Positions 17,987-33,031 of a DNA stretch of 64,000 nt are shown piece by piece (position 1 is the stretch's first letter; each line of letters opens with the position of its first letter). The translations under genes were made by a program, and so were the position numbers. This DNA is from Marinicauda algicola (GTDB taxonomy: Bacteria; Pseudomonadota; Alphaproteobacteria; Caulobacterales; Maricaulaceae): positions 2,915,501 through 2,979,500 of the forward strand of contig NZ_CP071057.1 in NCBI RefSeq assembly GCF_017161425.1. The letters run 5' to 3'. The notes beneath the pieces were generated by a model. The model was not told where the DNA came from, did not search any database, and was given only the letters and a program-made list of their open reading frames with translations.

Positions 17987-20307
17987 CCGCCTTCGAGCAC
18001 CAGGACCCGGGAATTCTCCGGCGCGGCGTCCGGCGTCCAGTCGGTGCGGATCTCGTAGCTGTCGCCCTGCGCCCAGCGCGGGGCGAGATCGCGATAACGC
18101 TTCGACCAGGGATGACCGGACTGTCCCGGCGCATGCATGAAGCGCGAGGCGTCGAGGTCGGAGAGGTCGTAGACCGCCCTCAGCGAGGGGCCGTGATAGA
18201 CCGTGTAATCGCCCGAACGGTAGCTGAAATGGCCGACATTGAGCGTCGAGCCGTCGCCGCCGACCGGGGTCTCCACCGTGAACCAGTCCCCGATCACCGG
18301 AACGCCGGTGAAGGGGTGGTCGAACAGGGCGCGGTGGCTGTCGGCCCAGCGCCAGGCGTCGATATCGTCGCCATGGGTGAGTTCCAGCTCGGCCATGGCG
18401 CTGTCGAGGGCGAGTCCGGCGATCACGGCGCAGCTCTCGACCTCGCCGGTGCGGATGTCGTCGCACCAGGCCGACGCGTCCCCGGTGAGCACGCGCTCGA
18501 TGAAGAGCCGGCGCGGGTAGAAGAAGCGCTCGAACTCGGGGCCGAGCTCGTCGGAATAGACTGCGGCGGTGAGCGCCTTGATCCAGGCCGAGAAGATCAG
18601 GCCCTCAGGCCCGTCGCCCGACAGCGTGCCGTCCCAGCGCTCGATGCGCGCGAGGGCCTCGAGGCCGAGCTGGGTTTCCGGATCGGCGCCGATCAGGGCG
18701 GTGTGGATGCGCCGGGCGAACGCGGAGGTCACGTCCATCTGCATGGCATTGAAGCTGGCGGCATCGTGGGCGGGATTGGCGTCGAGCAATTCCTCGATGC
18801 GCGGCGCGCGGTAGATGCCGTAACTGCCCGGCAGCGGGTAGGGATAGGCCTCGCCGGCGACGAGATTGTTGCCCGAGGCGATCGCGCCGCCCTGCGGATT
18901 TCGCACGCGGGGCAGGTCCTCGAACGGGATGAAACCGGTCCAGTTCCCATCCCGGTCGCGGATCGGAAGGAGGCCGGCGGTGGAATAGCCGATCGTGCCG
19001 TCGACGCCGGCGTAGTGCATGTTCTGCATCGGCGCGGTCCAGCCGCGCGTGGCCTCCACGAAGCTGTCCCAGCCGGTCGAGTGCATGATGCGGTAGGTGG
19101 CGTCGGCAACGTCGTTGCCCGGATCGGTGACCGTCCAGCGCAGGACGACGGCCTTGTTCTCCGTGTCGAAGGCCTCCAGCGAGAACCAGGCCGGGTCGAG
19201 GATCGGGCCCTCCGCGGTCTCCCAGACCGTCAGCTCGACATCCTCGCCGCCCTTCACGCGGATCGTCTCGGTGCGCTCGGTGATGTTGAGCCCCGCCGGG
19301 TCGCGCTCGACCCAGTCGATCACGTCGAAGCCGGTATTGGTGAAGCCCCAGGCCCCGTGCGCATTGCGTCCCAGGATGATGAACGGCGTGCCGGGCGTGG
19401 AGGCGCCGACCACGGGAGTGGCCTCCAGCTCCAGCCGGACCATGTACCAGATCGAGGGCGCGGCGAGCGCGAGATGGGGATCGTTGGCCAGCAGCGGCGC
19501 GCCCGAGGCCGTGCGCGAGCCGTCGACGACCCAGGCATTGGAGCCCGGCAGGTTGTCCGGCTGGGATAGGGCCTCGGATTCGTCCCCGGGCGGGGGCAGA
19601 ACCTCCTCGGTGATCTCGGAGAAGCGCGGCGCGAGATCCTCGTCCTTCAACGTGGTCGGGCCCCAGTCGGGATATTGCGCGCGGAACTGCTCGAACTGCT
19701 GCGGGGTGAGAAGATCGGCGAGCGAGGCGCGCTCCACGTCGTCCCCGGCCCCGGCGGCGAGCGAGTCGGCGAGATAGAGGGTGAGCCCGGCCGAATCCAC
19801 CATCCGCCAGGGCTCCGGCTCGGTTCGCAGGATGGCGTATTCCGGTGCCGGCCGGCCCCGCGCGAGGCGCGCGTTGACGCCTGCGACATAGGCCTCGGTC
19901 GCCGCGCGCGCTTGCGGCGAGAGATTGGCGAGAACCGCCTCGGCGGCCTGGGGGAAGCCCTTGATGCGCGACTGGGCGTCGCTCCTGATCGCGCGTTCTC
20001 CGAACAGCTCGGCGAGCCGGCCGTGCACGAAGCGGCGGGCGAGATCCATCTGGAAGAAGCGCTCGTCGGCATGGGTGTAGCCGAGCGCGAAATAGACGTC
20101 GGCGTCGCGCTCGCCGAAGATATGCGCCGTGCCGTTCTCGTCGCGCACGATGGTAGCGCGGCCGTCATAGCCCTCGATCCCGACGCGGCCCTCGGTCTGC
20201 GGGCGGCTGGACTGGAAGCGCCAGCCGAGCCAGCCGGCCGCTCCGAGCCCGGTAAGCAGCGCGACCACCACAAGCGCGATCACCCCGCGCACGATCCATT
20301 TCACCAT
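17983..20307 (-). CDS. penicillin acylase family (Ntn-hydrolase) protein
   Basis: A 774-residue N-terminal-nucleophile hydrolase precursor. An N-terminal signal anchor (about residues 5-28) is followed by the alpha-chain region (GRATIVRDENGTAHIFG, ALGYTHADERFFQMDL). The maturation site is G-S256-N in LPGSNAWVVDGS, where Ser256 would become the free catalytic N-terminus of the beta chain. Family members cleave amide bonds in beta-lactams or acyl-homoserine lactones, or have unknown substrates; the substrate cannot be told here. It is convergent with pbpC, with stop codons overlapping in CTAG. Confidence 0.92.
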   Translation of the reverse strand: MVKWIVRGVIALVVVALLTGLGAAGWLGWRFQSSRPQTEGRVGIEGYDGRATIVRDENGTAHIFGERDADVYFALGYTHADERFFQMDLARRFVHGRLAELFGERAIRSDAQSRIKGFPQAAEAVLANLSPQARAATEAYVAGVNARLARGRPAPEYAILRTEPEPWRMVDSAGLTLYLADSLAAGAGDDVERASLADLLTPQQFEQFRAQYPDWGPTTLKDEDLAPRFSEITEEVLPPPGDESEALSQPDNLPGSNAWVVDGSRTASGAPLLANDPHLALAAPSIWYMVRLELEATPVVGASTPGTPFIILGRNAHGAWGFTNTGFDVIDWVERDPAGLNITERTETIRVKGGEDVELTVWETAEGPILDPAWFSLEAFDTENKAVVLRWTVTDPGNDVADATYRIMHSTGWDSFVEATRGWTAPMQNMHYAGVDGTIGYSTAGLLPIRDRDGNWTGFIPFEDLPRVRNPQGGAIASGNNLVAGEAYPYPLPGSYGIYRAPRIEELLDANPAHDAASFNAMQMDVTSAFARRIHTALIGADPETQLGLEALARIERWDGTLSGDGPEGLIFSAWIKALTAAVYSDELGPEFERFFYPRRLFIERVLTGDASAWCDDIRTGEVESCAVIAGLALDSAMAELELTHGDDIDAWRWADSHRALFDHPFTGVPVIGDWFTVETPVGGDGSTLNVGHFSYRSGDYTVYHGPSLRAVYDLSDLDASRFMHAPGQSGHPWSKRYRDLAPRWAQGDSYEIRTDWTPDAAPENSRVLVLEGG

Positions 20308-20485: not shown

Positions 20486-21241
20486 ATGACCTGCTCCGTT
20501 CCGACGGCGTGCACCTGCGCGAGGCCCTTTCCGGCCGAGCTGAAATTCGCCTTCCAGCCCATCATCGACGCGCGCGCGCAGACGGTCTTCGCGCAGGAAG
20601 CGCTCGTGCGCGGCGCGGACGGGGAGGGCGCGGGCGCGATCCTCGCCCTGGTCGACAAGGCAAACCTGCACGCGTTCGACCGCAAGTGCCGCATCGGCGC
20701 GGTCAAGGCGGCGGCTCGTCTCATGGGGCCGCAGGACGGGCTGCTGTCGGTCAACACCCTGCCGAATTCTGTCTACGATCCGGAAACCTGTCTTCGCACG
20801 ACGATCGCGGCGGCCGAGGCGGCGGGCTTTCCCGTCGAGCGCATCATGTTCGAGATGACCGAGCACGAGGCCATCATCGACCTCGACCATTTCGTGACGA
20901 TCGTGAAGAGCTACAAGGACATGGGCTTCACCACCGCGATCGACGACTTCGGCGCCGGCTCGTCGGGGCTGACCCTGTTCGCCAGGGTCCTGCCCGACGT
21001 GATCAAGATCGACCGCGCCCTCGTCGACGGGATCGCGGACAACGAGGTACAGCGCGCCATCGTCGGCAATCTCGCCGAACTGTGCGCGAAACTCTCGGTC
21101 AAGGTGATCGCCGAGGGCATCGAGCGCCGGCAGGATTTCGAAGCCCTGGGCGAACTCGGCATCGCGCTGTTCCAGGGCTACTACTTCGCCAGGCCGGTGC
21201 TGGAGAGCGTGGTGAGGCCCGCCCTGCCGGCAGCGGCCTAG
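20486..21241 (+). CDS. stand-alone EAL-domain cyclic-di-GMP phosphodiesterase
   Basis: A 251-residue protein that is almost entirely an EAL domain. Catalytic elements are present: E38AL, the NTLP asparagine, EMTEHE, DDFGAGSSGL, KID and AEGIE, so it is probably active in hydrolysing c-di-GMP. There is no GGDEF, PAS or membrane region. The only extra feature is a short N-terminus with three cysteines (residues 3, 9 and 11: CSVPTACTC), possibly a metal or redox contact. The ATG at 20486 was chosen because the EAL domain begins shortly after. The stop shares CTAG with the convergent dehydrogenase. Confidence 0.9.
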   Translation: MTCSVPTACTCARPFPAELKFAFQPIIDARAQTVFAQEALVRGADGEGAGAILALVDKANLHAFDRKCRIGAVKAAARLMGPQDGLLSVNTLPNSVYDPETCLRTTIAAAEAAGFPVERIMFEMTEHEAIIDLDHFVTIVKSYKDMGFTTAIDDFGAGSSGLTLFARVLPDVIKIDRALVDGIADNEVQRAIVGNLAELCAKLSVKVIAEGIERRQDFEALGELGIALFQGYYFARPVLESVVRPALPAAA

Positions 21242-22659
21242 CCCGACTGCAGCTTCTTGAAGAACTCGAACATCTTGCCGTAGGGCGGGCGGATCAGGCG
21301 GCTGGGATGCCAGACCGGGGCCTCGAAGACCGCGCGCTCGTGGGTGAAGGTCAGGAAGCCGTCCTCGCCGTGATAGGCGCCCTGGCCGGAGGCCCCGACC
21401 CCGCCGAAGGGCAGGTCGGGCACCGACAGGTGCAGCATCGGCACGTTGACCGCAGCCCCGCCGGAGATCGTGCGCGACAGGAAGCGGCGCGCGGTATCCT
21501 TGCTCCTGGCGTAGACATAGAGGGCGAGCGGGCGGTCGCGCTCGTTGACGAAGCGGGCCGCGTCGCTCATCCCGTCATGGCCGAGCACGGGCAGGACGGG
21601 GCCGAAAATCTCCTCCTTCATCAATGCGATGTCGGTGGGCGGGTTGATCACGATGGTTGGCGGATAGGCACGCACGCCCTGCTGGGGGCTGGTCGCGAAT
21701 TCGGCCTGGAGGACTTCCGCCCCGGCCGAGCGGGCCTCCTCGACGAGTTTCTCGATGCGCTGATAGTGCCTGTCGGAGATGATGGCCGTGTAGTCGGCGT
21801 TCTCGCCGGCCTCCGGCCACATCGCCCTGACCTCGTCGATCATCGCCTCGGCGAAGTCGTGCTCGCTGCCCTTCGGGGTCAGGACATAGTCCGGCGCGAC
21901 GCAGGTCTGGCCGGCATTGAAGAACTTGCCCCAGGCGATGGTCTTGGCCGCCTGGCGGATGTCGAAATCATTGGCGATGACGGTCGGGCTCTTGCCGCCG
22001 AGTTCCAGCGTGACGGGGGTGAGGTTCTCCGCCGCGGCCCTGGCGACCAGCCGGCCGACCTGGGTCGAGCCGGTATAGAAGATGTGGTCGAGGGGAAGCG
22101 AGCAGAAGGCCTGCGCCACCTCGGGTCCGCCGGTGATCACCGCGACATGGTCCTCGCTGAACAGCTCGCCGAGGGTCTCCTTCAGGAGCTCGGCGGTGCG
22201 CGGGGTGAACTCGCTCGGCTTGATCATCGCCCGGCAGCCGGCCGCGAGCGCGGCGGTCAGCGGCGCGAGGGCGAGCTGCATGGGATAGTTCCACGGCGCG
22301 ACAATGCCCACCACGCCCTTGGGCTCGCGCCGGACATAGGCATTGCCCGGCTTCAGCGTCATCGGCACGTCCTTGCGCCTCACGCTCATCCAGCGCGCCA
22401 CGTTCTTGCGGGCATGCTTGGCGTCGGCGATCATGAAGCCGATCTCGGCGATCTCGGTTTCCGCGCCCGAGCGCCGGCCATAGTCGGCATTGATCGCCTC
22501 GACGAAATCCGCGGCGCGGCGCTTGACCATGTCCTCGATCTTCTTCAGGTCGCTCTTGCGCTCCTCCAGCGAGCGGTGACGCTCGGCCTCGAAGGCGCGT
22601 TTCTGGCGCGCATGGATGTCCTTCATGCGCTCGATCTGGCGGGTGTCGACATCGCTCAT
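21238..22659 (-). CDS. coniferyl-aldehyde-dehydrogenase-like NAD(P)-dependent ALDH
   Basis: A 473-residue aldehyde dehydrogenase oxidising an aldehyde to an acid. It shows the general-base glutamate in TLELGGKSP, the catalytic C253 in GQTC, and the class 3/CALDH-type C-terminus (PYGKMFEFFKK) seen in coniferyl aldehyde and long-chain fatty aldehyde dehydrogenases. There is no signal peptide, so it is cytoplasmic. It is last in a minus-strand operon with a GMC alcohol dehydrogenase (20 bases upstream) and a serine hydrolase, so it probably acts on the aldehyde made by the GMC enzyme. Confidence 0.92.
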   Translation of the reverse strand: MSDVDTRQIERMKDIHARQKRAFEAERHRSLEERKSDLKKIEDMVKRRAADFVEAINADYGRRSGAETEIAEIGFMIADAKHARKNVARWMSVRRKDVPMTLKPGNAYVRREPKGVVGIVAPWNYPMQLALAPLTAALAAGCRAMIKPSEFTPRTAELLKETLGELFSEDHVAVITGGPEVAQAFCSLPLDHIFYTGSTQVGRLVARAAAENLTPVTLELGGKSPTVIANDFDIRQAAKTIAWGKFFNAGQTCVAPDYVLTPKGSEHDFAEAMIDEVRAMWPEAGENADYTAIISDRHYQRIEKLVEEARSAGAEVLQAEFATSPQQGVRAYPPTIVINPPTDIALMKEEIFGPVLPVLGHDGMSDAARFVNERDRPLALYVYARSKDTARRFLSRTISGGAAVNVPMLHLSVPDLPFGGVGASGQGAYHGEDGFLTFTHERAVFEAPVWHPSRLIRPPYGKMFEFFKKLQSG

Positions 22660-22679: not shown

Positions 22680-24287
22680 TCACCGTGCTGCGGCGATCAT
22701 GTCCGCCGCGCGCGTGGCGATCATGATGGTGGGCGCATTGGTATTGCCGCCGACCAGGCGCGGCATGACCGAGGCATCGACGACGCGCAGCCCCGCCACC
22801 CCGTAGACCCGGCACTCGGGATCGACGACCGCCATCTCGCCGCGCCCCATCGCGCAGGTGGAGGTGGGATGGTAGAGCGTCTCGGCGAGATCGCGCACCT
22901 CCTCGGCGAGCTGGGAGCGCCCGGCATCGGCGCTGGAGGGGAGTTCGAGTTCGGCGCGCTCCTCCTCGAAGGCGTCCGAAAGCAGCAGGTCGCGCGCGAT
23001 CTTCAGGCAGTCGATCATGACCTCCATGTCGTGGCCGTCATCCTCGAGATAGGCCGGATCGATGCCGACATGCTCGGCCGGATCGGCACTCTTCAGGAAC
23101 AGCCGGCCGCGACTCTTCGGATAGAGATTGCAGGCGTGAAGCGAGATGCCGTGCCCGGTCATCGTGCCCTCGCGCCCGTGCGGGCTGGACAGGCCCGGAA
23201 TGAAGACGAGCTGGATGTCGGGCAGATCCTTCGCCCGGCTCGACTTCACGAAGCCGGAACCCTGCACCGGGTTGACGGTGAAGTCGCCGGAGCCGGTGAA
23301 GGCCCACTGCAGGACATCGCGGGCATTGGCGGGGAGCTTGCGCCAGGAATAGCCGAGCGACTTCGCGCTCTTCGTTCGCGCACGCGCCATCACGTCGAGA
23401 TGGTCCTGCAGGTTCGCCCCGACGCCCGGCAGGTCCTTTTCCACCGCAATTCCGTGCTCGCGCAGGTGATCTGCCGGGCCGATCCCGGACAGCATCAGGA
23501 GCTGGGGCGAGTTGAGCGCCCCGCCGGCGAGGATCACCTCGCGTTTCGCAATGACGGTCTTGCGCTCGCCCTTGTGATCGATCTCCACGCCCGTCGCGCG
23601 GCCCTCCTCGACAACGACGCGCCGCGCGAGCACGCCGGTCATCACGTTGAGGTTCTCGCGCTTCAGGGCGGGTTTGAGGAACGCGTCGGCGGCCGAGCAG
23701 CGCTTGCCGTCCTTCTGGGTGACCTGATAGGTGCCGAAGCCTTCCTGCCTCTCCCCGTTATGGTCCGGGTTCTCCGGGATCTGGGCGCGCCGGCAGGCCT
23801 CGTGATAGAGTTCGGTCATGGGGTTGACCGGACGGATGGTCTTCACGTTCAGCGGCCCGCCCCTGCCGTGCCAGGGCTCGCCGTGATCCTCGTTGTGCTC
23901 CACGCGCTTGAAGGCGCGAAGGGCGCTGTCCCGGTTCCAGCCCGTGGCGCCGTACCCGGACTCCCACTCGTCGTAATTCTCCCACGCCCCGCGCATGTAG
24001 TGCATCGCGTTGATCGAGGACGAGCCGCCGAGCGTCTTGCCTCGCGGCCAGTAGAGGCGCCGGTCCCTCAGTTCCTTCTGCGGCTCGGTCCAGTAGTCCC
24101 AGTTGATCTTGGGATCGGTGATGGCGAACTGCAGCAGCATCGGCGTCTTGATGTTCGCCCTGTTGTCCTTGCCGCCCGCTTCCAGCACGCAGACCGTGAC
24201 GTCCCGGTCCTCGCTCAGGCGCCCGGCGAGCGTCGAACCCGCAGAGCCCGCGCCGACGATGACATAGTCGAACTCCAGCGCGCTCAT
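22680..24287 (-). CDS. GMC-family FAD alcohol dehydrogenase
   Basis: A 535-residue glucose-methanol-choline oxidoreductase of the choline dehydrogenase/AlkJ type. It has the FAD Rossmann motif VGAGSAGSTLAGRL at the N-terminus, GGSSSINAMHYMRG, the GMC signature GGALNSPQLLMLSGIGP, and the C-terminal active-site region HPTSTCAMG ending in GGNTNAPTIMIA. It oxidises a primary alcohol to an aldehyde; the substrate is unknown, and AlkJ-like enzymes accept medium-chain alcohols. Its ATG overlaps the stop of the upstream hydrolase (ATGA), and the aldehyde dehydrogenase follows, forming a two-step oxidation module. Confidence 0.93.
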   Translation of the reverse strand: MSALEFDYVIVGAGSAGSTLAGRLSEDRDVTVCVLEAGGKDNRANIKTPMLLQFAITDPKINWDYWTEPQKELRDRRLYWPRGKTLGGSSSINAMHYMRGAWENYDEWESGYGATGWNRDSALRAFKRVEHNEDHGEPWHGRGGPLNVKTIRPVNPMTELYHEACRRAQIPENPDHNGERQEGFGTYQVTQKDGKRCSAADAFLKPALKRENLNVMTGVLARRVVVEEGRATGVEIDHKGERKTVIAKREVILAGGALNSPQLLMLSGIGPADHLREHGIAVEKDLPGVGANLQDHLDVMARARTKSAKSLGYSWRKLPANARDVLQWAFTGSGDFTVNPVQGSGFVKSSRAKDLPDIQLVFIPGLSSPHGREGTMTGHGISLHACNLYPKSRGRLFLKSADPAEHVGIDPAYLEDDGHDMEVMIDCLKIARDLLLSDAFEEERAELELPSSADAGRSQLAEEVRDLAETLYHPTSTCAMGRGEMAVVDPECRVYGVAGLRVVDASVMPRLVGGNTNAPTIMIATRAADMIAAAR

Positions 24288-25609: not shown

Positions 25610-25622
25610 TGAACACCGTTCT
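25610..25622. promoter_or_regulatory. 13-bp palindromic operator, copy A
   Basis: TGAAC-ACC-GTTCT, an inverted repeat with a three-base centre. It is 57-70 bases upstream of the serine hydrolase start on the minus strand. The same motif recurs at 27335, 30340 and 31842. Its length and symmetry suit a TetR-type repressor; no such regulator gene is in the window. Confidence 0.6.
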
Positions 25623-25656
25623 TAAAAGGAAGGCCAGACGGTTTTGCGGGCGCGAG

Positions 25657-26799
25657 CTATTCCGGCACGACGCGCAGAACCATGCCGTTTGCCGCGTCGG
25701 TCAGCAGGTAGATCGCCCCGTCCGGGCCTTCGGCGACGTCGCGGATGCGCGCGCCCAGCTCGGTGAAGAGGATCTCCTCCTGCGCGACCTCGCCGCCGTC
25801 GAGTTCCAGCCGGTGCACCTCCTTGTCCGACAGCGCGCCGACGAAGAGATCGCCCTGCCAGTCCGGGAACAGGGCGCCGCGATAGACGATGAGGCCGGAC
25901 GGCGCGATGGACGGTGTCCAGCCCGTCACCGGCGCGGTGAAGCCCTCATGGCTCTCGAAGGGGGAGATGCGTGCGCCGGAGTAATCGATCCCGGCGGTGG
26001 CGATCGGCCAGCCGTAATTGGCGCCTGGCTCGATCAGGTTGAACTCGTCGCCGCCTTGCGGGCCGTGCTCGTGCTGCCAGACCCGCCCGGTTTCGGCGTC
26101 ATGGGCCATGCCCTGCGCGTTGCGGTGGCCGTAGCTGAAGATTTCCGGAAGCGCGCCCTCGGTGTCCACGAAGGGATTGTCCGCCGGTGCCGAGCCGTCG
26201 CGGTTCAGCCTGACCGTCGTTCCCAGGTGATTGGTCAGCACCTGGGCCTGCTCGCGGTATTCGAAGCCTTCCCCGATCGTCAGCAGGAACGTCCCGTCGG
26301 GCAGGAAGACGATGCGCCCGCCGAAATGGGCGTTGGTGTCCTTGAACGGTTCGGCGAGGAAGATCTGCTCGCCGGCCTCCAGGCGCTCGCCGTCGAAGCG
26401 CGCGCGCCAGACCGCCGTCGCGTTCGCGTCCGCGTCTCCGGCTGCATAGGCGAGATAGATCTCGCCGGTCTCGCCATAATCGGGCGCCAGCACGATGTCG
26501 AACAGGCCGGCCTGGCTCTCGTTGTAGACTTCGGGAACGCCGGGGACGGGATCGGAGACCCGGCCTTCGGGCGTCACGACACGAAGCCGGCCGGGCCGTT
26601 CGGTGACGAGCATGTCGCCCGAGGGCAGGAAGGCGATCGACCACGGGTGCTCGAGGCCCTCGGCGACCGTCTCGATGCGATAGGCGAGGCTCGGCTCGGA
26701 GGGCGCAGCCGGGGCGGCGTCCCCGGCCTCGCCTCCACACGCACCCAGGCTCAAGGCTCCCGCGGCGGCAGCCGGAATCGCGACCGTCCATCTCTTCAT
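25657..26799 (-). CDS. PQQ-type aldose/sorbosone dehydrogenase-like lipoprotein
   Basis: A 380-residue six-bladed beta-propeller of the soluble aldose sugar dehydrogenase (YliI/Asd, GSDH) family. A lipoprotein signal with lipobox LGAC is at residues 15-20. Family stretches include LEHPWSIAFLPSGDMLVTERPGRL, GLFDIVLAPDY (an N-terminal calcium/PQQ region), EIFSYGHRNAQG and HEHGPQGGDE. It would oxidise an aldose or other alcohol with PQQ in the periplasm; no PQQ genes are in the window. The ATG at 26799 gives the signal peptide. It is divergent from a small membrane protein. Confidence 0.9.
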   Translation of the reverse strand: MKRWTVAIPAAAAGALSLGACGGEAGDAAPAAPSEPSLAYRIETVAEGLEHPWSIAFLPSGDMLVTERPGRLRVVTPEGRVSDPVPGVPEVYNESQAGLFDIVLAPDYGETGEIYLAYAAGDADANATAVWRARFDGERLEAGEQIFLAEPFKDTNAHFGGRIVFLPDGTFLLTIGEGFEYREQAQVLTNHLGTTVRLNRDGSAPADNPFVDTEGALPEIFSYGHRNAQGMAHDAETGRVWQHEHGPQGGDEFNLIEPGANYGWPIATAGIDYSGARISPFESHEGFTAPVTGWTPSIAPSGLIVYRGALFPDWQGDLFVGALSDKEVHRLELDGGEVAQEEILFTELGARIRDVAEGPDGAIYLLTDAANGMVLRVVPE

Positions 26800-26878
26800 T
26801 CTCGCCTCCCCCGTTTCCCGGTTTTGCGCCGACGCGCTTTGAGCCATGATAGAGGCAAATCGGGGGAGGAGAAACGTC

Positions 26879-27319
26879 ATGGCCTGGATACGCGTCCCGC
26901 TGGCCTGGCTTGCGGCGGTCGTCGGCATGGCTGCGACCGGCGTCGTCGTGCAGACCCAGTTCGTGCTGGGCGCGCTGGCCGATGTCGGCGCAGATATCAC
27001 CCTGGCCGACCGGATGGAGATGACGGTCGACGATCTCGCCGGGTTCGGCCCGACCTATGCAGTGTTCATCGCGATCGGCTTTGCCATTGCCTTCTTCGCC
27101 GGCTGGCTGGTGATCCGCTACGCCCGCCTGCCGCGCCCGCTGGTCCACGCGGTCGCCGGTGCGGCGTGCATGGGCCTCATGCTGGTGCTGATGGAGCAGG
27201 TCTTCTTCGGCGTGCCGGTGATCGCCGGAGCCCGCTCGGCGGCGGGCTTCTCCGCTCAGGCGGCGCTCGGTGCACTCTGGGGTTTCATCTACGCGGGACT
27301 TTCCGGCACGCGGCGCTGA
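26879..27319 (+). CDS. hypothetical four-helix membrane protein
   Basis: A 146-residue protein with about four hydrophobic segments and little loop sequence. I do not recognise the family. The ATG at 26879 follows GGGGGAGGAG at normal distance and is preferred over an upstream ATG at 26846. It is divergently oriented from the PQQ-type dehydrogenase, with 79 bases between them, and may share its promoter region. The next downstream element is the operator and promoter region of the TonB receptor. Confidence 0.75.
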   Translation: MAWIRVPLAWLAAVVGMAATGVVVQTQFVLGALADVGADITLADRMEMTVDDLAGFGPTYAVFIAIGFAIAFFAGWLVIRYARLPRPLVHAVAGAACMGLMLVLMEQVFFGVPVIAGARSAAGFSAQAALGALWGFIYAGLSGTRR

Positions 27320-27334
27320 AACATGCTTATTTCG

Positions 27335-27347
27335 CGGACGATGTTCG
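27335..27347. promoter_or_regulatory. 13-bp palindromic operator, copy B
   Basis: CGGAC-GAT-GTTCG, one mismatch from a perfect inverted repeat. Its reverse complement shares ten consecutive bases (CGAACATCGT) with copy D at 31842. It lies 145 bases upstream of the TonB receptor ATG. Confidence 0.5.
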
Positions 27348-27366
27348 AAAATATGTGTCCTTCTTG

Positions 27367-27389
27367 TCACGCTTAACGTGATGCTCACG
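27367..27389. promoter_or_regulatory. nested CGTGA/TCACG inverted repeats
   Basis: TCACG-CTTAA-CGTGA (27367-27381) is a perfect 15-base palindrome. Its right arm also pairs with a second TCACG (27385-27389) across TGC. A further CGTGA-N5-TCACA lies at about 27448-27462. All are between the membrane protein gene and the TonB receptor start, so a second operator type is likely here. Confidence 0.4.
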
Positions 27390-27492
27390 AAGATCACATG
27401 ACAAATCGAAAAATAGCGGCATACACTTCAGCCAAGCGCAGTGCGACCGTGATGAAGTCACACGCGCAAGACACCCAGGGGGAGGAGACCCG

Positions 27493-30249
27493 ATGAATCG
27501 TATCACCAAAGCCGGCCTGCTCGGCGCGAGTGCGCTGACCGCGGGCCTTATGCACGCCGCGGCCTTCGGCCAGGATGTGACCCCGCCCGTGAACCGCGCC
27601 GTCGACGACGTCATCGTCGTCACCGCGCAGAAGCGCGAGCAGACGCTGCAGGAAACCCCGGTCTCGGTCTCGGTCGCCACCGGCGAGCAGATCGAGGTCG
27701 CCCAGGTCCGCGATGCGGCCGACCTGCAGATCCTGGTCCCGTCGCTGCGGGTGTCGGAATTCGCCGCGTCGACCAACACCCAGTTCACGCTGCGCGGCGT
27801 GGGCACCAGCTCCTTCAACCCGGGCCTCGAGCCGTCGGTGGGTATCTTCGTGGACGGCGTCTACCGCCCGCGGGCCGGTGCCGCCATCAACGACCTGCTC
27901 TCGATGGAGCGCGTCGAGGTGATCCGCGGTCCGCAGTCGACCCTGTTCGGGCGCAACACGCCGGCCGGCGTCGTCAGCTTCATCACCCAGGAGCCTGAGT
28001 TCGAGTTCGGCGGCGACGCCGAGCTGACCTTCGGCAATTACGGGCAGTTCGTCGCCAAGGGCACGGTGACCGGGCCGCTGGTGGCGGACGCGCTCGCCTT
28101 CCGCTTCGATGCGACCCACCACACCAACACCGGCTATCTCGACAACGTCTCGCCGGTCGGGGTGATCGACGAGGTCAACAACCGCGACCGTCAGAACTTC
28201 CGCGGTCAGCTCCTGTGGACGCCGACGAACGACACCGAAGTCCGCATCATCGCCGACTGGGGCAATATCGACGAGAATTGCTGCGCCGCGCCGTTCGGCT
28301 TCTACGACCCGATCGATGCCGCTGCCATCGCGGGACTCGGCGGCACGCTGGTCCCGGCCGATCCGTGGGGCGGCGACATCGCGGTGAACGGGCTGGTGAA
28401 TACCGAGCTGAAGCAGTCCGGTCTCTCGGCCCAGATCGATCACGACTTCGATGGCTTCACCTTCACCTCGATCACCGCGTACCGCACCTATGACGAGGCG
28501 CAGAACATCGACGCGGACTTCTCCGATCTCGACCTGGTCGGCAGCCGCGACATCGACAACGAGTACAACAGCTTCACCCAGGAATTCCGGGTCACCTCGA
28601 CCGGCGACAACTTCGTCGACTGGATGGGTGGTGTGTTCTTCTACGACAACGATCTGACGTTCCGCCAGAATGTCGACTACGGCTCGGACGCAAAGGCCTT
28701 CTTCGATCTCGCCTCGGCCTCGTCCGTGGCGCCGCTCGTGGCCGCCTTCGGCCTGCCGCCGGGGACCGGCGGGGTCAGCTTCCTCGAGTTCCTGGTCGGC
28801 ACCAACAACGCGCTCGGCGTGACCGGCGTGCCTATCGCTCCGGCGGAGGGTTATGTCGCCGAGGACCACGGTGTGGTGCTGGAGCAATTCCAGTACGACA
28901 CCCAGTCCTGGTCCGGCTTCGGTCAGCTCGACTTCAACATCACCGACCGCTTCACCTTCACGGTCGGGGCGCGCTACACCGAAGAAGACAAGGAGATGGC
29001 CACCCAGATCGATGTCGACGACCCGATCTCGGCCATCAGCTTCACCCAGCTCGGCGCCAATGTGCGCCTGCCCAACCCGGCCCTGTGCCCGGGCTTCCCG
29101 AACGGGAATACCTGCCCGTACTTCCTGAACGCGGTCCTGCTGCAGCAGGCGGCTGGGGACCCTGCGCTCGCCGCAGCCCTCACCCAGATCGCGGCCGCAG
29201 CCGGCACGTCGCTCGCCGACCCGACCTTCATCTACAACGGCACGGTTGCCTCGATCATCGCCAACACGCCGCAGCTCAACCTGTTCAACGGGTTCTCGGC
29301 GTTCCAGAACTTCCTGCCGGCCAGCGCCTCGCAGTATCCGACGAGCCGCAGCGACGACAACGTCTCCTACAGCCTGATCGCGAGCTACGACGTCTCCGAC
29401 ACGCTGAACGTCTATGCGAGCTATTCGACGGGCTTCAAGCCGGGCGGGTTCAACCTGTCCTACGAGGCGGTCGAGACGCAGAAATTCGAGTTCGAGGAAG
29501 AGACGGCCTCGTCCTGGGAGATCGGCGCGAAGGGCTCGGTCTTCGACGGCGCGCTGAACTACGCCATCACCTATTTCGATCAGGAGATCGAGGACTTCCA
29601 GGCCGAGAACTTCCTGGGTGCGGGCTTCGCGCTCGACAACGCGGGTTCGATCGAGGTCAGCGGCCTGGAGTTCGACTTCGCCTGGTCCCCGACCGAGCGG
29701 CTCTTCTTCACGCTCGGGGGTACCTACCTGTTCGAGAGCAAGTATGGCGAGTACGAGTTCGCGCCGTGCCCGGACAGCTCGCCGCTCTTCGGACCCGTCT
29801 ACGATCCGACGGACCCGCTGTTCTCGGCCTGTGCCACGCCGCGGCTCAATCCTGAAACCGGCGTGACCAGCAGGTTCAACGACCTGTCGGGCGTGGACCG
29901 TGGGAATTCGGAGCTGATCGCCTCGCTCACCGGCACCTACACTCATCCGATCGGGAACAATCACGAACTCTTCCTGCGCGGTGAGGCCTATCACTCGTCG
30001 GAGTATGCCCTCACGACGAGCCTCGATCCGCGGCCCGTGGCCAACCAGGACGACTTCACGCTGTACAACGCCTCGGTCGGCTTCGGCCCGACCGACGGTG
30101 CCTGGCAGCTGCAGGTCTGGGGCCGCAATCTCGGGGAGGAGGAGTACAAGAAGGGCGGGTTCCCGTCGGTGGGTTACCTCGGCTCCAGCGTCAACATCTA
30201 CCCGGGCGATCCGCGGACCTACGGGCTGACGCTGCGCGCCCGCTTCTAG
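27493..30249 (+). CDS. TonB-dependent receptor (FecA/IroN-type, substrate unknown)
   Basis: An outer-membrane active transporter of 918 residues. It has a signal peptide (about residues 1-27), a TonB-box-like DDVIVVTAQKRE at about 37-48, a plug domain with VLVPSLRV-type and VIRGPQSTLFGRNTPAG motifs, a large beta-barrel and a terminal aromatic residue (LRARF). It belongs to the broad group of receptors common in Caulobacterales, Maricaulales and Sphingomonadales for plant, terpenoid or other organic compounds. Two operator types precede it, and a clear terminator follows. Its place in the operator-linked block suggests it imports the pathway substrate (inference). Confidence 0.93.
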   Translation: MNRITKAGLLGASALTAGLMHAAAFGQDVTPPVNRAVDDVIVVTAQKREQTLQETPVSVSVATGEQIEVAQVRDAADLQILVPSLRVSEFAASTNTQFTLRGVGTSSFNPGLEPSVGIFVDGVYRPRAGAAINDLLSMERVEVIRGPQSTLFGRNTPAGVVSFITQEPEFEFGGDAELTFGNYGQFVAKGTVTGPLVADALAFRFDATHHTNTGYLDNVSPVGVIDEVNNRDRQNFRGQLLWTPTNDTEVRIIADWGNIDENCCAAPFGFYDPIDAAAIAGLGGTLVPADPWGGDIAVNGLVNTELKQSGLSAQIDHDFDGFTFTSITAYRTYDEAQNIDADFSDLDLVGSRDIDNEYNSFTQEFRVTSTGDNFVDWMGGVFFYDNDLTFRQNVDYGSDAKAFFDLASASSVAPLVAAFGLPPGTGGVSFLEFLVGTNNALGVTGVPIAPAEGYVAEDHGVVLEQFQYDTQSWSGFGQLDFNITDRFTFTVGARYTEEDKEMATQIDVDDPISAISFTQLGANVRLPNPALCPGFPNGNTCPYFLNAVLLQQAAGDPALAAALTQIAAAAGTSLADPTFIYNGTVASIIANTPQLNLFNGFSAFQNFLPASASQYPTSRSDDNVSYSLIASYDVSDTLNVYASYSTGFKPGGFNLSYEAVETQKFEFEEETASSWEIGAKGSVFDGALNYAITYFDQEIEDFQAENFLGAGFALDNAGSIEVSGLEFDFAWSPTERLFFTLGGTYLFESKYGEYEFAPCPDSSPLFGPVYDPTDPLFSACATPRLNPETGVTSRFNDLSGVDRGNSELIASLTGTYTHPIGNNHELFLRGEAYHSSEYALTTSLDPRPVANQDDFTLYNASVGFGPTDGAWQLQVWGRNLGEEEYKKGGFPSVGYLGSSVNIYPGDPRTYGLTLRARF

Positions 30250-30273
30250 GTCCGACGTTCGACGACGCAATCG

Positions 30274-30300
30274 AAGGCGCCGGGCATGTCCCGGCGCCTT
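30274..30300 (+). terminator. rho-independent terminator after TonB receptor
   Basis: An 11-base perfect stem AAGGCGCCGGG/CCCGGCGCCTT with a five-base loop, followed by CTTCTTT. It lies 25 bases after the receptor stop. Confidence 0.85.
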
Positions 30301-30339
30301 CTTCTTTGCAGCCGGCATTTGCGCCGCCGCGCAAAATGA

Positions 30340-30352
30340 TGAACAGTGTTCG
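30340..30352. promoter_or_regulatory. 13-bp palindromic operator, copy C
   Basis: TGAAC-AGT-GTTCG, upstream of the 151-residue protein and hydroxylase operon (ATG at 30404). The reverse complement matches copy D at 12 of 15 positions when one flanking base is counted on each side. Confidence 0.6.
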
Positions 30353-30403
30353 CAAACGTCCCCGGGGCGCTTCATCTCGCCTGCGGCTCTGGATGCGAGA
30401 CCC

Positions 30404-30859
30404 ATGAACGACCCAGTCATCCTCGCCCTGGTCCTCGCCATTTCCGCGCTGTCGATCACCGGCCTGGTCCTGCTCAACCGGCGCCTCGGCGGCTGGACGC
30501 CGGCGCGGCTCGACAGCCTGGAGGCCGCGGGCAGGCGCCTCGCCGAGGACGTCGTGGGGTTCGTGGCCGGCGAGGGCGTGCTGGGAAGCGACGGGGCCGC
30601 AGCCCTCGTCGAGGAGGGAAACGGCGACCGTCTCGGCCTGGTGCTCGCGCGCGGCGACCGGTGCGTGACCCGGGCGCTGCGGCCCGGCGAGCTCATCGCC
30701 GTGACCCGGGAGGGCGCGACGCTCACCCTGCATCTGGCCGACTTCACATTTCCGCGCTTCGTGACGACACTGCACGACGCCGACATCGCCGCGCGCTGGG
30801 CCGAAAGGGCCGCGCGCTTCACTTCTGCGAGCCGAGACGGCCATGCCGAACCTGCCTGA
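30404..30859 (+). CDS. hypothetical single-pass membrane protein
   Basis: A 151-residue protein with one N-terminal membrane helix (about residues 5-24) and a soluble domain that I do not recognise, rich in acidic and aliphatic residues and ending ASRDGHAEPA. It overlaps the start of the hydroxylase gene by 17 bases, so the two are translated together. It might be an accessory subunit of the hydroxylase, but nothing in the sequence (no Cys clusters, no ferredoxin motif) supports an electron-transfer role. Confidence 0.7.
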   Translation: MNDPVILALVLAISALSITGLVLLNRRLGGWTPARLDSLEAAGRRLAEDVVGFVAGEGVLGSDGAAALVEEGNGDRLGLVLARGDRCVTRALRPGELIAVTREGATLTLHLADFTFPRFVTTLHDADIAARWAERAARFTSASRDGHAEPA

Positions 30860-31796
30860 CCCGATCCTTCTGGCCATCCCCGTGTTCGTCGCTCTGATCA
30901 TCGCGGAGATGATCTATGCGCGGGTGACGGGCAGGGCGCAGTTCGAGCCCGGCGATACCGCGGCGAGCCTCGTCATGGGTTTCGGCAATGTCGTCTCCGG
31001 CATCGCGCTCGGCTTCGTATCGATCGCCTGGTTCGTGTTCCTCGAGCGGTTTGCCCTGCTCGAGATCGGCTATGCCTGGTGGGCCTTCGTGCTGGCCTTC
31101 GTGCTCGACGATTTCGTGTATTACTGGTCGCACCGGTTTGCGCATACCGTACGCTGGTGGTGGGCCGACCATGTCGTGCATCACTCCTCGCAGCACTACA
31201 ATCTGTCGACCGCGCTGCGCCAGCCCTGGCTCAGCCCGCTCACTCTCAAGTTCATCTTCTTCGGCTCGTGGCTGGTGCTGATCGGCTTTCCGCCGGCCAT
31301 GGTCGCCTTCGTCGGCGCGCTGAACCTGGTCTACCAGTTCTGGATTCACACCGAGGTGGTCGGCAAACTGCCCGCCCCGATCGAGGCGGTGATGAACACG
31401 CCCTCCCATCACCGCGTCCATCACGCGACGAACCCGCGCTATCTCGACCGCAACTATGCCGGGGTGTTCATCGTCTGGGACAGGATGTTCGGCACGTTCG
31501 AACCCGAGCGCGAGGACGAGCCCTGCCGCTACGGCATCGTGAAGAATCTCGGCACCCACAATCCGTGGGTCATCTCGATGCACGAATGGTGGGGCATCAT
31601 CAAGGACGTGCGCTCGGCGAAAACCCTGCGCGAGGCGCTGGGCTACTGGCTCGGCCCGCCCGGCTGGTCGCCGGACGGCAGCCGGGACTCCTCGAAGATC
31701 ATCAAGGCCAGGTGGGCCGCCCTGCAGGCCGGTGCAGGCAACGCCGGCGAGCCGGATCGGCAGCGCGAGCGCACCGAGCGCGTTCCGGCCGAATAG
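30843..31796 (+). CDS. sterol desaturase/fatty-acid-hydroxylase-family di-iron membrane enzyme
   Basis: A 317-residue integral membrane oxygenase. The eight-histidine pattern of the superfamily is visible: H97-RFA-H101, H110-VVHH (to H114) and H189-HRVHH (to H194), set between hydrophobic helices. These enzymes hydroxylate or desaturate sterols, fatty acids, carotenoids or alkyl ethers using oxygen; the substrate here is unknown. The gene overlaps the preceding membrane protein gene, and an operator shared with three other units lies upstream. A diiron soluble protein gene follows under its own copy of the operator. Confidence 0.9.
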   Translation: MPNLPDPILLAIPVFVALIIAEMIYARVTGRAQFEPGDTAASLVMGFGNVVSGIALGFVSIAWFVFLERFALLEIGYAWWAFVLAFVLDDFVYYWSHRFAHTVRWWWADHVVHHSSQHYNLSTALRQPWLSPLTLKFIFFGSWLVLIGFPPAMVAFVGALNLVYQFWIHTEVVGKLPAPIEAVMNTPSHHRVHHATNPRYLDRNYAGVFIVWDRMFGTFEPEREDEPCRYGIVKNLGTHNPWVISMHEWWGIIKDVRSAKTLREALGYWLGPPGWSPDGSRDSSKIIKARWAALQAGAGNAGEPDRQRERTERVPAE

Positions 31797-31830
31797 GCGG
31801 TACTGGACAGCGGGGCTGTCTTTCGACCAT

Positions 31831-31854
31831 TATACAATTCGCGAACATCGTTCA
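31831..31854 (+). promoter_or_regulatory. candidate promoter -10 with palindromic operator, copy D
   Basis: A TATACAAT element (31831-31838), plausible as a -10 box, is followed directly by CGAAC-ATC-GTTCA (31842-31854). A protein bound there would cover the start of transcription, which suits repression. The diiron gene ATG is 92 bases downstream. No convincing -35 box is visible. Confidence 0.5.
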
Positions 31855-31945: not shown

Positions 31946-33031
31946 ATGACGGCCCTGCGCGACCTCTACCCGATGCCGGACATCGACCCCCACTGGCACG
32001 TGCCCCAGGAGTTCGACGCCGTCTTCGACTGGCGCTTCGACGAAGGGCGCACCACGCTCATGCACCTCTATCAGAAGGGCAAGGACATGCAGTGGGATGC
32101 GGTCAACCGCATCGACTGGGAACTCGAACTCGACCCCGAAAACCCGATGCAGATGCCCGACGAGGCGGTGCCGATCTACGGTTCGGACGTCTGGAACAGG
32201 ATGACGGACAAGGAAAAGGCCGAGATGCGCCGGCACGGCCAGGCCTGGAACATCTCCCAGTTCCTGCAGGGCGAGCAGGCCGCGCTCCTGGCCGCCTCCA
32301 AGATCGTCCAGTCCGTGCCCGATCTCGATTCGAAATTCTACGCCGCGACCCAGGTCATGGACGAGGCCCGTCACGTCGAGGCCTACCGCAAGCTGATGAC
32401 CAAGTTCGGCGTCGCCTATCCGATGACCACCCCGCTGGAGGAGCTGGTCAACGACGCGCTGCGCGATTCGCGCTGGGACATGACCTATCTCGCCATGCAG
32501 GTGGTGATCGAGGGACTGGCACTCGCCGCCTTCGGCACGATCCGCGACATCGCCCAGAACCCGCTCGCGCGCATGGTCAACGCCTATGTCATGGAAGACG
32601 AGGCGCGCCATGTCGCCTTCGGCCGGCTCTCGCTTCGCGACTACTATCCCCAGCTCACCCAGAAGGAACGCGACGAGCGCGAGGAATTCCTCGTCGATGC
32701 CTGCTATCTCATGCGCGACCGCATGACCCAGGGCAATGTCGTCTACGAGACGCTCGGCCTGCCGGTCGAGGAGTGCGAGGAATTCACCCAGCAGTCGGAG
32801 ATCGTGAAGCTCTACCGCACCCTCTTGTTCCAGCGCATCGTGCCCATCGTGAAGGATATCGGCCTCTGGGGTCCGAGAATCCGCAAGGCCTACGAGGACA
32901 TGGGCGTGATGCAGTTCGCCGAACTCGATCCCGAAACCCTGCAGAAGCAGGACGAGGGCATCGCGCGGGAGATCGACGCCAACAAGACGCGCCGCGACTA
33001 TATCGCCGCGGTCGCCGCGCACGCGGAATAG
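31946..33031 (+). CDS. ferritin-like diiron carboxylate protein (putative oxygenase)
   Basis: A 361-residue soluble helical protein with a complete R2/ferritin-like diiron ligand set: E110, E140-A-R-H143, E189 and E219-A-R-H222. The spacing (E, about 30 residues to ExxH, about 45 to E, about 30 to ExxH) matches diiron oxygenases and oxidases of the ribonucleotide-reductase R2/AurF-like group. It is not a canonical R2 or desaturase, and the reaction is unknown. GGAGGAG precedes the ATG. It stands alone between its own operator-bearing promoter and a terminator, next to a membrane di-iron hydroxylase. Confidence 0.88.
   Translation: MTALRDLYPMPDIDPHWHVPQEFDAVFDWRFDEGRTTLMHLYQKGKDMQWDAVNRIDWELELDPENPMQMPDEAVPIYGSDVWNRMTDKEKAEMRRHGQAWNISQFLQGEQAALLAASKIVQSVPDLDSKFYAATQVMDEARHVEAYRKLMTKFGVAYPMTTPLEELVNDALRDSRWDMTYLAMQVVIEGLALAAFGTIRDIAQNPLARMVNAYVMEDEARHVAFGRLSLRDYYPQLTQKERDEREEFLVDACYLMRDRMTQGNVVYETLGLPVEECEEFTQQSEIVKLYRTLLFQRIVPIVKDIGLWGPRIRKAYEDMGVMQFAELDPETLQKQDEGIAREIDANKTRRDYIAAVAAHAE

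What the first reader, a model, noticed from the sequence alone, without database searches (positions are those of the whole stretch)
25610..31854. Four copies of one palindromic operator tie together four transcription units
TGAAC-ACC-GTTCT (25610), CGGAC-GAT-GTTCG (27335), TGAAC-AGT-GTTCG (30340) and CGAAC-ATC-GTTCA (31842) are all intergenic and all upstream of genes. Three contain exact GAAC-N3-GTTC, which should occur less than once by chance in 64 kb at this base composition (my rough estimate). They precede the hydrolase/GMC/ALDH operon, the TonB receptor, the hydroxylase operon and the diiron gene. Copy D directly follows a TATACAAT. This looks like an undescribed TetR-type regulon; the regulator is not in the window.
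Basis: partly seen in the sequence, partly recalled or inferred. Interest (0 to 1): 0.75.

Follow-up and report, generated by a model that had tools for sequence, protein, structure and literature searches.

The report
Pump repressor's operator on lipid genes
Three of the four matching DNA sites look like real switch sequences of a drug-pump repressor encoded elsewhere in this marine bacterium's genome, and the same switch stands before many uptake and oxidation genes as well as the pump.

Summary
Sites A (25610), C (30340) and D (31842) are exact GAAC-N3-GTTC palindromes before genes. B (27335) is degenerate and no better than chance.

The refined operator is AAAAGTGAAC-RNY-GTTCACTTTT. The likely regulator is a TetR-family protein 1.1 Mb away (G000:C1:1827296-1827967, minus strand), directly upstream of an RND efflux operon. 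In 70 of 80 named orthologous loci the operator lies beside tetR (44 between tetR and the pump, 26 upstream of tetR); two control palindromes give 0 of 80. A matrix from those 70 sites ranks C, A and D first to third in the window; the next position scores half as much. The site before the diiron gene is kept in 8 of 10 relatives, and is missing in one that lacks a close TetR orthologue.

In eight Maricaulaceae 47 of 50 perfect operators are intergenic. They precede tolC, a flavin monooxygenase, a nitronate-monooxygenase-like gene, fatty-acid hydroxylase and GMC/aldehyde-dehydrogenase operons, among others. In three genomes of a sister family only 5 of 14 are intergenic, all at tetR-pump or tolC, suggesting that a local pump repressor gained a wide regulon. 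Binding, repression and inducer are inferred.

The parts
25610..25622 (.). operator A (TGAACACCGTTCT), 57 bp before the hydrolase-GMC-ALDH genes on the minus strand
   Evidence: exact core; matrix rank 2 in window; a site stands at the orthologous promoter in G001, G005 and G010
27335..27347 (.). proposed operator B (CGGACGATGTTCG); not supported as a site
   Evidence: matrix rank 22, score -1.5. G014 has a one-mismatch site before its TonB-receptor gene, 76 bp from the start against 145 bp here, and G001 and G010 share one site between TonB and hydrolase genes
30340..30352 (.). operator C (TGAACAGTGTTCG), 51 bp before the 151-aa gene and hydroxylase gene
   Evidence: exact core; matrix rank 1; site at the orthologous promoter in G001, G010 and G014
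31842..31854 (.). operator D (CGAACATCGTTCA), 91 bp before the diiron gene
   Evidence: exact core; matrix rank 3; exact site upstream of the orthologue in 7 of 10 relatives, one-mismatch in an eighth
31831..31838 (+). TATACAAT, -10-like element just before D
   Evidence: sequence
21238..22659 (-). aldehyde dehydrogenase gene
   Evidence: PF00171; gene
22680..24287 (-). GMC oxidoreductase gene
   Evidence: PF00732, PF05199
24284..25552 (-). serine hydrolase of the beta-lactamase fold; first gene behind operator A
   Evidence: PF00144
27493..30249 (+). TonB-dependent receptor gene behind the unsupported site B
   Evidence: PF00593, PF07715
30404..30859 (+). 151-aa protein, first gene behind operator C
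   Evidence: no Pfam or NCBIfam match
30843..31796 (+). fatty acid hydroxylase superfamily gene
   Evidence: PF04116
31946..33031 (+). AurF-like diiron protein behind operator D
   Evidence: PF11583, 79.4 bits against cut-off 29.6

Best explanation
A, C and D are operators of one TetR-family repressor (223 aa; G000:C1:1827296-1827967, minus strand) encoded directly upstream of an RND efflux operon. The dimer binds the palindrome AAAAGTGAAC-RNY-GTTCACTTTT over or just behind the promoter and blocks transcription; an inducer releases it. Its older job is control of the pump and of a TolC partner. In Maricaulaceae the operator has spread to further promoters (about 15 in this genome) for uptake, oxidation of membrane lipids or hydrocarbons, and electron transfer, so that pump and oxidation genes would be induced together. 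Shown by sequence: the operator, its place beside tetR, its conservation at target promoters, its co-occurrence with tetR. Inferred: direct binding, repression, direction of evolution, and a lipophilic inducer (fatty-acid or terpenoid-like; about 0.4 likely).
For: Operator beside tetR in 70 of 80 named loci, controls 0 of 80; in 11 of 12 Maricaulaceae and 4 of 4 genomes of family f2. Matrix from those sites finds C, A, D as the top three window positions. 21 of 21 own-genome sites at score 14.9 or more are intergenic in stretches that are 87% coding. Diiron-gene site kept in 8 of 10 relatives; G004, which has the gene cluster but no close TetR orthologue, has no operator in it. Perfect operators average 5.8 in 12 Maricaulaceae with the TetR and 1.3 in 12 without. 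The pump partner TolC carries the operator in 6 of 8 Maricaulaceae and 2 of 3 f2 genomes.
Against: No binding or expression data. G014 and the record L222 have the TetR but no site beside it. L260 and L271 have a pump-sized gene next but no site. G017 (8 perfect operators) and G035 (3) lack a close orthologue; G017 has another TetR with two copies upstream, so this kind of operator is not unique to one TetR. Several relatives lack sites at the A and C promoters. A and D score well below the pump operator. B fails. The matrix is not fully blind: its training sites were taken within one mismatch of a consensus that I had refined partly on diiron-gene sites, D included.
Confidence: 0.8

Rival explanations
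1. A different regulator, TetR-type or other, reads the distal sites (A, C, D and the other metabolic promoters), while the pump-linked TetR reads only the pump and tolC sites.
For: G017 has many such sites and a different TetR with two copies just upstream; the distal sites score lower than the pump sites in flanks and ends; there are 18 TetR_N matches in the genome.
Against: Perfect operators follow the pump-linked TetR across Maricaulaceae, and the top window positions by its own matrix are C, A, D. In this genome only one scanned TetR gene has an exact operator upstream, and its orthologues do not.
Confidence: 0.12
2. The regulator is the other TetR (G000:C1:3320474-3321073, plus strand), autoregulated through the site 51 bp upstream.
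For: Site TGAACGGTGTTCG 51 bp before its start, matrix score 16.1.
Against: Five of five orthologues examined have no site (best score 8.7; the sixth, in G034, was not examined). No close orthologue in G003, G007, G008, G010 and G036, which carry the operators.
Confidence: 0.04
3. The sites are chance matches to a short palindrome.
For: B behaves like chance; about 0.5 exact cores per 64 kb are expected.
Against: Conservation at orthologous promoters with diverged flanks; 21 of 21 intergenic; 70 of 80 beside tetR against 0 of 80 for controls.
Confidence: 0.02

Closest known systems
MtrR of Neisseria gonorrhoeae (PMC8053128, passages read)
   Same: TetR-family repressor of an RND pump (mtrCDE) that also acts on distant genes
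   Different: MtrR's published consensus is MCRTRCRN4YGYAYGK, unlike TGAAC-RNY-GTTCA; this protein gives 31.7 bits to the MtrR model against a cut-off of 280; the targets differ
TipR of Caulobacter crescentus (PMC10754441, passages read)
   Same: TetR-like repressor of an RND pump in the same bacterial order, with a few extra sites
   Different: TipR is divergent from acrAB-nodT, has 4 chromosomal sites and a different consensus, WTGaGWMtGAWC; here tetR and pump run in the same direction and sites are many. The two proteins were not compared
AcrR-type local pump repressors (PMC6790063, passages read)
   Same: TetR gene next to the pump it is thought to control, as in the f2 genomes
   Different: AcrR is given there as a local regulator; in Maricaulaceae the operator is at many distant promoters
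PsrA, FadP and FadR regulons of fatty-acid genes in Proteobacteria (PMC5343134, passages read)
   Same: regulons predicted by the same kind of comparative genomics; PsrA and FadP have more than 10 targets per genome; lineage-specific expansion is described
   Different: FadP is given as unique to Betaproteobacteria; no motif letters were shown in the passages, so operators were not compared
KstR and KstR2, sterol-catabolism repressors
   Same: TetR repressors of lipid catabolism; KstR2 is among the Foldseek matches of the model
   Different: 23.9 bits to the KstR model against a cut-off of 280; the KstR motif as I recall it has a 2-bp middle

Membership tests
TetR-family regulators | N-terminal TetR_N helix-turn-helix domain | tested here: met
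   PF00440, 58.6 bits against cut-off 24
TetR-family regulators | all-helical fold with a ligand-binding C-terminal domain | tested here: met
   fold only: AlphaFold2 model of the Marinicauda pacifica orthologue (L229), mean pLDDT 91.6, all helical; PDB matches are TetR proteins, best 3on2 at 1.1e-8. TetR_C_33 is below its cut-off, 24.3 against 26.8
TetR-family regulators | binds a palindromic operator near its own or neighbouring gene | tested here: inconclusive
   palindrome beside tetR in 70 of 80 loci; binding not testable here
TetR-family regulators | release from DNA by a small ligand | not testable with these tools
   needs protein and ligands
MtrR | match to the MtrR model over its cut-off | tested here: not met
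   31.7 bits against 280
MtrR | operator MCRTRCRN4YGYAYGK | tested here: not met
   operator found is TGAAC-RNY-GTTCA
TipR | tetR divergent from the pump operon, operator WTGaGWMtGAWC | tested here: not met
   same direction; different palindrome
TipR | sequence orthology to TipR | not tested
   TipR sequence was not fetched
KstR | match to the KstR model over its cut-off | tested here: not met
   23.9 bits against 280
LexA of Alphaproteobacteria | direct repeat GTTC-N7-GTTC (recalled) | tested here: not met
   A, C, D are inverted repeats GAAC-N3-GTTC

The most novel reading that the evidence does not exclude
In Maricaulaceae a pump repressor has become the master switch of an uncharacterised oxidation pathway for a lipophilic compound: a TonB receptor takes it up, the hydroxylase, AurF-like diiron protein and flavin monooxygenase oxidise it, GMC and aldehyde dehydrogenases process it, and the RND-TolC pump removes the excess, all induced by the same molecule. 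In the sister family the same repressor still guards only the pump.
Probability: 0.35. Interest if true: 0.7.

Novelty: new member of a known kind. Interest (0 to 1): 0.55.

Why it matters
It gives a testable regulator and operator for a conserved gene cluster of unknown substrate (AurF-like diiron protein, hydroxylase, TonB receptor) in a family of marine bacteria, and links that cluster to an RND-TolC pump. It is also a good case of a local pump repressor gaining a wide regulon in one family while staying local in a sister family, with the operator standing before tetR in one and between tetR and the pump in the other. Finding the inducer would point to the substrate of both pump and pathway.

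Tried and rejected
Site B as an operator: rejected. The TetR with a site just upstream in this genome (3320410) as regulator: rejected, five of five orthologues examined lack the site. The loci of all 18 TetR_N matches were scanned upstream; two (L048, L049) gave no gene call and were not judged, and L042 and L044 are one gene. MtrR, TipR, KstR and LexA were considered and not filed (membership table). A site before the penicillin-amidase-like gene of the window (17983-20307), whose orthologue has one in G008 and G036: none here, best score -2.3.

Search in print: 'GAACNNNGTTC' (0 papers); TetR + regulon + Maricaulis (5 papers); TetR + RND + Hyphomonas + operator; Marinicauda + TetR (7 found, 6 listed); six pump and lipid terms. 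Nothing in those listings describes this regulon; most of those papers were not opened. One search was useless because 'tetr' matched inside other words. Searches gave the papers cited. Only a library of openly licensed papers was searched. PMC5343134, PMC10754441, PMC8053128 and PMC6790063 were seen as passages, all others as listings.

Limits. Genes were called by my own codon-usage script, not taken from annotation. Two 'intergenic' sites (890635, 1451066) lie several hundred bp from any called gene, so a gene may have been missed; the site at 1814058 lies near the edge of its stretch. The score limit 14.9 was set after seeing the list. In L063 (G007) no gene was called and the site was placed against the protein match. 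Several target names (TolC, Coq4-like, beta-helix, flavin monooxygenase, TonB receptors in other genomes) rest on likeness seen by eye to proteins scanned in one genome.
Full report
WHAT WAS CHECKED. Three are exact GAAC-N3-GTTC; 0.51 are expected per window and 2 of 100 shuffles reach three. With one mismatch the pattern is no more common than chance (17 against 18.9), so B has no statistical support of its own. The window lies in a 3.42-Mb single-contig genome. Relative G001, of the same genus, has a contig of the same length as a Marinicauda pacifica record, and G010 one of the same length as a Maricaulis alexandrii record, so I take the host to be a Marinicauda and its family f1 to be Maricaulaceae.

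GENOME-WIDE. The core occurs 49 times in the genome, the reversed pattern 8 times. By my gene caller 26 of the 46 sites outside the window are intergenic, and so are the 3 inside. Sites at conserved promoters showed a purine-N-pyrimidine middle and T/A outer bases; TGAACRNYGTTCA within one mismatch has 27 sites against 2 for the control.

FOOTPRINTING OF THE WINDOW CLUSTER. The diiron protein was sought in 31 genomes including this one; 15 match. Of the 10 other genomes with a match at 66% identity or more, 7 have an exact YGAACNNNGTTCR upstream (G001, G003, G005, G007, G010, G014, G015), G008 has one mismatch, G004 and G026 have none near the start. The four distant homologues (G019, G021, G023, G029) show none. 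The flanks differ between genomes while the 13-mer stays. Genes of the cluster ALDH-GMC-hydrolase-TonB-151aa-hydroxylase-diiron lie together in 8 of the 9 relatives read (not G007, where only the diiron gene was found), in whole or part. A site stands before the hydrolase in G001, G005 and G010, and before the 151-aa gene in G001, G010 and G014. So the diiron site is nearly universal, while A and C are kept in about a third each.

THE REGULATOR. One TetR (223 aa) sits just upstream of an RND operon (HlyD-type and ACR_tran proteins), with a perfect operator between them. Matches at E 1e-12 or better occur in 23 of 41 genomes: 12 of 25 in the own family (44-100% identity), 4 of 4 in family f2 (44-45%), and weaker ones in 7 others. 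The operator lies just downstream of tetR in 11 of the 12 (8 exact, 3 with one mismatch; not G014) and just upstream of tetR in 4 of 4 of f2. The 8 weaker loci have none, save a one-mismatch match 295 bp past the stop in L138. In 80 named loci from a scan of GTDB genomes (the best 80 of 225 relatives), 44 have the operator within one mismatch downstream and 26 upstream of tetR, 10 neither; 18 and 17 loci have a perfect one; two control palindromes give 0 of 80 each. In 8 of the 10 without it no pump-sized gene follows; in L260 and L271 one does. Loci with the upstream layout are Hyphomonas, Henriciella and similar records, so f2 is probably Hyphomonadaceae. Some of the 80 records are the same genomes as the G handles, so the two counts overlap.

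SCORING WITH A MATRIX. A matrix from the 70 sites ranks C, A, D first to third among window positions (17.4, 15.7, 15.0; next 7.4); in 300 random sequences 0.01 to 0.06 positions reach those scores; B is rank 22. The training sites were taken within one mismatch of a consensus refined partly on diiron-gene sites including D, so the test is not fully blind. In the own-genome stretches read (0.41 Mb, 87% coding, holding every match), all 21 sites at 14.9 or more are intergenic; three of the 21 are copies of one sequence in what looks like an insertion element. From 14.4 down genic sites appear.

REGULON CONTENT. In eight Maricaulaceae (G000, G001, G005, G008, G010, G014, G015, G036) every perfect TGAACRNYGTTCA was looked at: 47 of 50 are intergenic (5/5, 4/5, 8/8, 8/8, 6/6, 3/4, 7/8, 6/6). 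Counting also sites with one mismatch where read, a site precedes a flavin monooxygenase in 7 of the 8, a TolC-type protein (PF02321 in this genome) in 6, a nitronate-monooxygenase-like gene in 5 (in G014 it lies 7 bp inside the called start, one of the three 'genic' cases), a glycosyltransferase in 3, a small secreted protein in 3, electron-transfer flavoprotein in 2, and a Coq4-like gene in 2 and probably a third. A parallel beta-helix protein has it in G008, G010, G036 and also G003, in this genome only weakly (score 8.0). In this genome further sites stand before a bile-acid-symporter-family gene, a short-chain dehydrogenase, TonB-receptor-like genes and a carboxylesterase. In three f2 genomes (G019, G027, G037) only 5 of 14 perfect operators are intergenic, three at tetR and two at a TolC-type gene. 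Two further intergenic CGAACAGTGTTCG sites in G037 have no gene start within 200 bp, and one of the 13 sites of G027 was not read.

CO-OCCURRENCE. Perfect operators average 5.8 in 12 Maricaulaceae with the TetR, 1.3 in 12 without (Mann-Whitney p 2e-4, not corrected for kinship; one incomplete genome, G032, left out), and 0.4 in 12 genomes of other families without a close orthologue. Exceptions are G017 (8) and G035 (3). G017 has a different TetR with two copies just upstream. G004 has the cluster, no close TetR orthologue, and no operator in the cluster.

MECHANISM. In 38 of 44 pump promoters a second half-site follows in the +18 register and in 34 of 44 a TATAT-like element lies 32-48 bp after the operator start; in the tetR promoters 26 of 26 have the second half-site but only 2 of 26 that element. 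At D a TATACAAT precedes the operator directly. Both layouts suit a repressor that blocks RNA polymerase. Repression, release by a ligand and the lipophilic nature of the ligand are inference from the TetR family and the target list; the model's PDB matches are generic TetR proteins and name no ligand for this one.

VERDICT. An ordinary kind of system (a TetR repressor regulon) with a regulator and operator that I did not find described, well supported for A, C and D and unsupported for B. The closest precedent for a pump-linked TetR with a wide regulon is MtrR (PMC8053128, passages).

Noticed in passing
G000:C1:3320410 (L022): A second TetR gene has an operator 51 bp upstream in this genome only; five orthologues examined have none, so it may be a recently gained target.
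   Followed up: yes
G017 contig 195, 14862-14898 (L362): A different TetR has two copies of a TGAAC-N3-GTTCA palindrome just upstream, in a genome without a close orthologue of the pump-linked TetR; a parallel regulon with a similar operator is possible.
   Followed up: partly
G000:C1:712852, 900314, 1914875 (L206, L207, L210): Three copies of one near-operator sequence (TGAACAGCGATCA) lie beside identical integrase-like genes, probably an insertion element carrying an operator-like sequence.
   Followed up: no
G000:C1:1377099 and 1377144 (L026): Two operators 45 bp apart stand before a small secreted protein gene; the like gene has a site in G014 and G015 too. Its function is unknown.
   Followed up: partly
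G000:C1:392484 (L016): A weak site (score 8.4) lies between two genes that look like pentapeptide-repeat proteins (one scanned). A Caulobacter paper (PMC12864828, listing only) ties a secreted protein of that kind to antibiotic susceptibility.
   Followed up: no
window 31946-33031: The AurF-like diiron protein has no close solved relative (best PDB match 7e-4) yet is 66-89% identical in 10 of the other 30 genomes searched: a conserved oxidase-like protein of unknown substrate.
   Followed up: partly
loci L223-L278 and L273-L301: The operator stands between tetR and the pump in Maricaulaceae and Robiginitomaculum records, but upstream of tetR, with tetR and pump nearly touching, in Hyphomonas and Henriciella records: a change of promoter layout.
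   Followed up: partly
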